This document shows, in pieces, positions 50,943-51,731 of a stretch of DNA of 64,000 nucleotides. A program made the translations under genes and the position numbers. Each line of letters begins with the position of its first letter. Position 1 is the stretch's first letter. The notes beneath the pieces are model-generated. The model was not told where the DNA came from and searched no databases. It worked only from the letters and a program-made list of their open reading frames with translations. Source of the DNA: Burkholderia seminalis DSM 23518 (GTDB taxonomy: Bacteria; Pseudomonadota; Gammaproteobacteria; Burkholderiales; Burkholderiaceae); NCBI RefSeq assembly GCF_902832885.1, contig NZ_CADFDK010000014.1, positions 1 through 64,000 of the forward strand. The letters run 5' to 3'.

Positions 50943-51731
50943 CAGGCGGACGGTGCGCGTCGTGATTCCGGCGCGGTACGGTTCGGCGCGGCTGCCGGGC
51001 AAGCCGCTCGTCGATCTGGCGGGCGAACCGATGATCGTCCGCGTGCATGCGCGCGTGCGCCGCGCGCTGCCCGATACCGACATCGTCGTCGCGATCGACG
51101 ACGCACGCATTGCCGAGGTACTCGACGCGCGCGGCATCCGGTTCGCGATGACCGATACCGGTCACGCGTCCGGCACCGACCGCGCGGCGGAACTCGCGCG
51201 GGCGTTTGGCTGGCCCGACACCGACGCGGTGCTCAACGTGCAGGGCGACGAACCGCTCGTGCCGACGGCGCTGCTGAGGGCATTCGCCGGATTTTGCGGC
51301 GCGGCGCCGGATCTCGGTGTCGCGACGGTCGCCTGCCCGGTCGGGCAAGGCGCGCTGCTCGACGAGCCGGCGATCGTCAAGCTCGTCGTGGATCGCCACG
51401 GCCGCGCGCTGTACTTCTCGCGCGCGGCGATCCCGTTCTGCCGCGACGGGCGGCCGGCGGCGGACGGTGCGAGCGGGACCGGGTTTCTGCGCCACATCGG
51501 CCTCTACGGCTACGCGAATGCGACGCTGCAGGCGCTGGCGAGCGCGGCACCGTGCGAACTCGAACAGCTGGAGAAGCTCGAGCAGTTGCGCGCGCTGTGG
51601 CTCGGCATGCCGATCGACGTGATGCGCTGGCCCGATGCGCCGCCCCCCCCGGCATCGATACGCCCGACGACGTCGCCCGTGTCGTCTCCCTTCTCAAACG
51701 GCAAACCCATGATGCGACAGAACCATATTGA
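50926..51731 (+). pseudogene. kdsB: CMP-Kdo synthetase with an out-of-frame poly-C tract near the 3' end
   Basis: The first 239 codons encode a good CMP-Kdo synthetase: RVVIPARYGSARLPGKPLVD (nucleotide loop), ASGTDRAAE, NVQGDEPLVP, and ELEQLEKLEQLRALWLGMPI. At 51643-51650 a run of eight C residues shifts the frame. The expected end, PGIDTPDDVARVVSLLKR, is encoded in the next frame and stops at 51731, overlapping kdsD. As read here, translation instead continues without a stop into kdsD and gives a 572-residue KdsB-KdsD fusion. One added C or two fewer would restore the normal gene. Sequence error, phase variation or a true fusion cannot be told apart here. The lost tail helix may be dispensable. 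Confidence 0.85.
51643..51650 (+). repeat. Homopolymeric tract of eight C in kdsB
   Basis: The run CCCCCCCC lies within GCGCCG-C8-GGCATC. It is the exact point where the kdsB homology changes frame. Mononucleotide runs of this length are prone to slippage during replication and are also frequent sites of sequencing error. Confidence 0.95.

What the first reader, a model, noticed from the sequence alone, without database searches (positions are those of the whole stretch)
51643..51650. Poly-C(8) tract switches the kdsB frame and fuses KdsB to KdsD
The kdsB homology is in frame until a run of eight C residues. After the run, the conserved KdsB tail (GIDTPDDVARVVSLLKR) is in the next frame, while the original frame continues open into kdsD to give a 572-residue fusion. 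Adding one C or removing two restores a normal kdsB with a stop overlapping kdsD. This is either a phase-variable contingency site controlling Kdo supply to the exopolysaccharide, a fixed KdsB-KdsD fusion, or a sequencing error. In all cases the surface polymer genotype depends on this run.
Basis: partly seen in the sequence, partly recalled or inferred. Interest (0 to 1): 0.8.

Follow-up and report, generated by a model that had tools for sequence, protein, structure and literature searches.

The report
Broken sugar gene at poly-C run
A run of eight C's breaks the reading frame near the end of a sugar-activating gene in this bacterial draft genome, but the same draft breaks several unrelated genes at similar runs, so it is more likely a sequencing flaw or a chance slip than a genetic switch or a real fused enzyme.

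Summary
In detail: a C8 run (51643-51650) lies near the 3' end of kdsB in a kdsA-kdsC-kdsB-kdsD branch of a polysaccharide cluster of a Burkholderia draft genome. The KdsB tail is in another frame, and the original frame continues through kdsD as a 572-aa ORF. The switch and fusion readings are poorly supported. In 14 of 14 other genomes with a near-full-length match, kdsB ends normally; 13 have no run of five or more there, one a shorter in-frame run. The fused frame lacks the equivalent of E. coli KdsB Asp235, a metal ligand; KdsD is intact. Of 37 other G/C runs of eight or more in this genome, five split unrelated conserved genes (xylA, ilvE, BioF/Kbl-like, tssK, vgrG), while 30 could not be judged. 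In three relatives one of 49 was flagged, a gene junction by reading. Best reading: a homopolymer-length error of the assembly; second, a recent slippage mutation. A second open kdsB exists. Only reads can decide.

The parts
51643..51650 (+). run of eight C, where the frames part
   Evidence: alignment with 14 relatives
50926..51642 (+). kdsB up to the run (CMP-Kdo synthetase)
   Evidence: TIGR00466 210 bits, cut-off 155.2
51651..51731 (+). conserved KdsB tail and stop, in another frame; holds the equivalent of E. coli KdsB Asp235
51709..52644 (+). kdsD (KpsF/GutQ family isomerase, SIS and CBS domains), intact; own ATG at 51709, and also the C-terminal part of the 572-aa ORF
   Evidence: start placed by analogy with the annotated 936-base gene of B. 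pyrrocinia
50391..50942 (+). kdsC-like HAD phosphatase gene
   Evidence: TIGR01670 over its cut-off
49495..50394 (+). kdsA, Kdo-8-phosphate synthase gene (listed ORF; true start may lie downstream)
   Evidence: TIGR01362 and NF009109 over their cut-offs
48351..49517 (+). glycosyltransferase-like gene
   Evidence: all matches below curated cut-offs; the gene at this place in B. pyrrocinia is annotated glycosyltransferase
44440..48382 (+). flippase-like, capsule-synthesis-like, hexapeptide transferase and glycosyltransferase-like genes of the same cluster
   Evidence: Pfam; same order annotated in B. pyrrocinia BX1
41866..44376 (+). Wzc-type tyrosine autokinase gene (listed ORF; true start may lie downstream)
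   Evidence: TIGR01005 and TIGR01007 over their cut-offs
56041..56925 (-). nucleotidyltransferase gene; the gene at this place in B. pyrrocinia is annotated galU

Best explanation
The C8 run marks a homopolymer-length flaw of this draft assembly: the written run length is most likely wrong, and the organism most likely carries an ordinary separate kdsB that overlaps kdsD, as its relatives do. The 572-aa KdsB-KdsD ORF would then exist only in the written sequence. Shown: the frame break, its absence in 14 of 14 relatives, the missing Asp235 equivalent, and breaks at similar runs in unrelated genes of the same assembly. Inferred: that the cause is base calling or assembly and not mutation.
For: 14 of 14 relatives with a near-full-length match have a normally ending kdsB. 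The tail shows 12 synonymous and 0 non-synonymous codon differences to the five relatives nearest at the locus. Five of 37 other runs of eight or more split conserved genes: in four the two halves match adjacent parts of one family (xylose isomerase 2-188 and 191-421; BioF 52-281 and 291-364; ilvE 4-234 and 238-357; TssK 2-176 and 179-404); in the fifth T6SS_Vgr is followed in another frame by DUF2345. By reading, 2 of 30 seven-base runs examined (87 present) also look like breaks. The same scan in three relatives flagged 1 of 49 runs, and that one is a gene junction by reading. Fisher p 0.005 with kdsB and that hand correction, 0.013 without kdsB. The broken genes share no evident theme. mutS and mutL are open and over cut-off. 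Three of 38 runs lie within 500 bases of a contig end, 0.26 expected (the 500 was chosen after seeing the places).
Against: No reads were at hand and the platform is unknown. On the raw automatic counts, without hand correction, 5 of 37 against 1 of 49 gives only p 0.08. 30 of 37 own runs and 41 of 49 control runs could not be judged. The control genomes were those whose places were listed first, not a random draw. A strain with truly raised slippage would give the same pattern. mutS and mutL were judged by open frame only; other repair genes were not checked. No essential single-copy gene was found broken: a second ilvE-like gene is open.
Confidence: 0.58

Rival explanations
1. A genuine recent slippage mutation in this isolate: the cluster's KdsB lost its C-terminal metal-binding aspartate and became an inactive part joined to a working KdsD. 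CMP-Kdo would come from the second kdsB. It is a loss of function, not a switch.
For: One relative (L016) has an uninterrupted but shorter in-frame C run at the same place, so such a run can arise. A second open kdsB, 47% identical, lies at G000:C16:56399-57082, so the loss could be tolerated. Several other genes of the genome are split at runs, as raised slippage would give.
Against: mutS and mutL are open. No sign of decay in the tail. No confirmed break at 49 runs of three relatives, 41 of which could not be judged.
Confidence: 0.28
2. A phase-variable contingency site: the run changes length at a high rate and switches the cluster's KdsB on and off, and so the Kdo supply to the polymer.
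For: A run of eight can slip (general knowledge). The gene lies in a surface-polysaccharide cluster. PMC2831843 cites phase variation in a Burkholderia species (passage seen; the cited work was not read).
Against: 13 of 14 relatives have no run of five or more there and one has a shorter run. It is near the 3' end. Similar runs split xylA, ilvE and other genes with no known reason to switch. A second kdsB could blunt any switch.
Confidence: 0.1
3. A fixed, functional KdsB-KdsD fusion enzyme.
For: The frame is open through both genes and both parts match their families.
Against: 0 of 14 relatives and 0 of 38 named loci have it. The Asp235 equivalent is missing and the replacing peptide has no acidic residue. 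The tail is still conserved in the kdsB frame.
Confidence: 0.02
4. Ribosomal frameshifting or transcriptional slippage at the run makes some normal KdsB from the written sequence.
For: Long homopolymers can slip in transcription (general knowledge).
Against: The run is not conserved, so no conserved programme is seen. Expression could not be tested.
Confidence: 0.02

Closest known systems
KdsB (TIGR00466) and KdsD/KpsF (TIGR00393) encoded by separate overlapping genes, as annotated in Burkholderia pyrrocinia BX1
   Same: Domains, gene order, and the overlap of the kdsB tail with the kdsD start
   Different: In the window the kdsB frame leaves the tail at a C8 run and continues through kdsD
Homopolymer-length errors in draft bacterial assemblies (general knowledge)
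   Same: Breaks at G/C runs in several unrelated conserved genes of one assembly
   Different: Reads and platform unknown, so the error itself is not shown
Phase-variable surface genes with poly-C/G runs, for example in Neisseria and Bordetella (general knowledge)
   Same: A C run in a gene for a surface polymer
   Different: Run not conserved among species, near the 3' end, and the same assembly has such breaks in metabolic genes

Membership tests
functional KdsB | nucleotidyltransferase domain with the QGDEP motif (E. coli Gln98, Asp100) | tested here: met
   NVQGDEP in the 572-aa ORF; alignment of the relative L012 with E. coli 3k8d; residue numbers from a figure legend of PMC2901514
functional KdsB | C-terminal metal-ligand aspartate (E. 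coli Asp235, in DTPEDL) | tested here: not met
   absent from the 572-aa frame, encoded in the other frame. That Asp235 is the D of DTPEDL rests on counting along the alignment with a 16-residue tag on the 264-residue chain; the tag length is inferred, and it also places Asp100 on QGDEP
functional KdsD | full-length KpsF match with SIS and CBS domains | tested here: met
   TIGR00393 positions 1-267 of 268, 335.2 bits, cut-off 203.7; Pfam SIS and CBS
phase-variable contingency locus | run kept, with variable length, among related genomes | tested here: not met
   between species: 13 of 14 relatives without a run of five or more, one with a shorter in-frame run; no set of strains of one species was available
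phase-variable contingency locus | mixed run lengths within one culture | not testable with these tools
   no reads
phase-variable contingency locus | breaking runs confined to surface or variable genes | tested here: not met
   other split genes include xylA, ilvE and a BioF/Kbl-like gene, besides tssK and vgrG
homopolymer sequencing or assembly error | breaks at runs in unrelated conserved genes of the same assembly, absent in relatives | tested here: met
   5 of 37 other runs; controls 1 of 49 flagged, a gene junction by reading; 30 of 37 and 41 of 49 not judged; raw Fisher p 0.08
homopolymer sequencing or assembly error | reads disagree with the written run length | not testable with these tools
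   no reads
mutator strain | broken mismatch-repair gene mutS or mutL | tested here: not met
   both open, over cut-off, no stops inside; missense changes and other repair genes not checked

The most novel reading that the evidence does not exclude
A strain with raised slippage at G/C runs despite open mutS and mutL, in which a set of unrelated genes, the polysaccharide kdsB among them, changes state by run length: a genome-wide contingency condition and not a set of dedicated loci.
Probability: 0.05. Interest if true: 0.55.

Novelty: not a real feature. Interest (0 to 1): 0.12.

Why it matters
A striking fusion or switch read from one draft sequence should be held against relatives and against other runs of the same assembly before it is believed. 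If the mutation were real, it would be a natural case of a strain that has lost the polysaccharide cluster's own CMP-Kdo synthetase while a second copy remains.

Tried and rejected
A GC3 frame test at the runs was too noisy and was replaced by a seven-state frame decoder trained on 28 window ORFs. That decoder does not flag the window's own site, because the fused ORF is in frame and the displaced tail is short; kdsB is therefore added by hand in the 6 of 38 count. L132 of G002 was flagged and reclassified as a stop-start junction by reading. Own L082 and L100 count as in frame on both sides by the automatic rule, but by reading L100 is a gap between two genes and L082 is unclear. Of four seven-base runs flagged, L202 and L204 are gene junctions and were dropped; L183 and L191 were read as breaks by eye without a family search. 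One Fisher test (5 of 8 against 0 of 8) had cells that fit none of my counts and was not used. The hope of finding an essential single-copy gene broken, which would have argued strongly for error, failed: a second ilvE-like gene is open.

Literature: searches were seen as listings with starts of abstracts only. One search (KdsB, KdsD, fusion protein, bifunctional; 7 papers) showed no title or abstract start on a KdsB-KdsD fusion, but none of the 7 was opened. Passages, not whole texts, were seen of PMC3149649, PMC2901514 and PMC2831843.

Full report
WHAT IS THERE. The window is bases 1-64000 of contig 14 of a 55-contig, 7.97 Mb draft genome. That it is Burkholderia is inferred: the best hit in the plasmid collection is B. 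pyrrocinia at 87% over the whole 2.25 kb query, and six named Burkholderia loci match at 82-90% protein identity. The eight C's are at 51643-51650. The ORF 50926-52644 reads KdsB and then, in the same frame, KdsD, 572 residues in all; the conserved end of KdsB is in another frame, in the ORF 51294-51731. NCBIfam models match KdsB at residues 10-234 and KpsF/KdsD at 305-570.

SURROUNDINGS. Upstream are kdsA (49495-50394) and a kdsC-like gene (50391-50942), and before them a Wzc-type kinase, a flippase-like gene, a capsule-synthesis-like gene, a hexapeptide transferase and glycosyltransferase-like genes. B. pyrrocinia BX1 has the same order, annotated as separate kdsB and KpsF/GutQ genes that overlap by 23 bases. 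The cluster probably makes an exported polysaccharide that contains Kdo (inference).

COMPARISON WITH RELATIVES. Of 65 genomes of the genus searched with this kdsB region, the window's own included, 14 others gave near-full-length matches at 83-91% DNA identity (L012-L025); the other 50 gave only weak or partial matches. In all 14, kdsB ends normally, 262-271 residues from the mapped start, with the GIDT/GVDT tail in frame. In 13 of 14 the place holds no run of five or more; in L016 there is a shorter uninterrupted C run, in frame. In a collection of named genomes, 38 of 39 loci with a near-full-length match (6 Burkholderia, 1 Paraburkholderia, 31 more distant) end 23-35 residues after the match with a tail of the type [GS][IV]DT, and none continues into KdsD; the 39th, L079, is a partial match. 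Some named loci may be the same genomes as the unnamed ones.

WHAT THE BREAK WOULD DO. E. coli KdsB binds metal through Gln98, Asp100 and Asp235 (figure legend of PMC2901514, passage); in this enzyme class two conserved aspartates form one of two magnesium sites (passages of PMC3149649). On the alignment of the relative L012 with 3k8d, counting with an inferred 16-residue tag, Asp100 is the D of QGDEP and Asp235 the D of DTPEDL. The window's 572-residue frame keeps the first and lacks the second; the replacing peptide ASIRPTTSPVSSPFSNGKP has no acidic residue. If the written sequence is true, the KdsB part is predicted inactive and the KdsD part intact. A second open kdsB on contig 16 (47% identity) and a second kpsF-type gene on contig 17 could cover for it.

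IS IT RECENT? The tail codons differ from the five relatives nearest at this locus (L012-L016) by 12 synonymous and 0 non-synonymous changes; from the other nine by 26 synonymous and 30 non-synonymous changes, two of these nine having tails of another length that were compared position by position over the shorter length. The tail was thus kept as a KdsB tail until very recently, or still is.

OTHER RUNS IN THE SAME GENOME. The genome has 38 distinct G/C runs of eight or more (77 overlapping matches, 18 of them in one 25-base run; median of 64 relatives 26.5, 5 of 64 higher). The 37 others were fetched, mostly with about 700 bases on each side, and reading frames were decoded. Five show a same-strand frame change at or near the run. 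In four, the halves on either side match adjacent parts of one NCBIfam family: xylose isomerase, BioF/Kbl type, branched-chain aminotransferase ilvE, and TssK. In the fifth, vgrG, the decoder switches 32 bases before the run; NCBIfam names only the left half, and Pfam finds T6SS_Vgr on the left and DUF2345 on the right in another frame. Two more runs count as in frame, and 30 could not be judged. Control: all 49 runs of eight or more in three relatives (12 in G002, 18 in G001, 19 in G003) gave one switch, seven in frame and 41 not judged; the one switch (L132) is a stop-start junction by reading. Fisher tests: 6 of 38, kdsB included by hand, against 0 of 49, p 0.005; 5 of 37 against 0 of 49, p 0.013; raw automatic 5 of 37 against 1 of 49, p 0.08; among judged sites 5 of 7 against 1 of 8, p 0.04. 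The control genomes were those whose places were listed first, not a random draw. Among 30 of the 87 seven-base runs, four were flagged: two are gene junctions, and two look like breaks by eye; no control was run for seven-base runs.

READING. The split genes have no evident theme in common but the run. mutS and mutL are open and over their cut-offs. Three of 38 runs lie within 500 bases of a contig end where 0.26 would be expected (the limit was chosen after seeing the places), which would fit poor read support at such runs. I take a homopolymer-length error of the assembly as most likely (0.58), a true slippage mutation as second (0.28), and a dedicated switch as third (0.10). A working fusion (0.02) is disfavoured by the missing aspartate and its absence elsewhere. 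Without reads, error and mutation cannot be told apart.

OMISSION. The genus includes the agent of glanders, so I neither tested nor state which change of run length would give a normal gene, and made no restored sequence.

Noticed in passing
L085 (G000:C3:573600-575000): Xylose isomerase gene split into two frames at a run of eight.
   Followed up: partly
L094 (G000:C5:244770-246170): BioF/Kbl-type gene split at a run of eight.
   Followed up: partly
L099 (G000:C6:88330-89730): Branched-chain aminotransferase ilvE split at a run of nine; a second, open ilvE-like gene is on contig 15.
   Followed up: partly
L116 (G000:C29:5490-6890) and L083 (G000:C2:79840-81240): Type VI secretion genes tssK and vgrG split at or near runs of eight.
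   Followed up: partly
L183 and L191 (G000:C1, runs at 135112 and 824242): A methyltransferase-like gene and a ROK/NagC-like regulator gene look split at runs of seven; named by eye, no family search.
   Followed up: no
L105 (G000:C7:307046-307070): A run of 25 C in a stretch scored as non-coding.
   Followed up: no
genomes G027, G045, G050, G051: Very many C8 matches (156, 304, 476, 192) against a median of 26.5 in 64 relatives; poor assemblies or slippage-prone strains.
   Followed up: no
L073 (Geminicoccaceae MAG): KdsB at the end of a 537-residue stop-to-stop frame; the upstream part was not examined.
   Followed up: no
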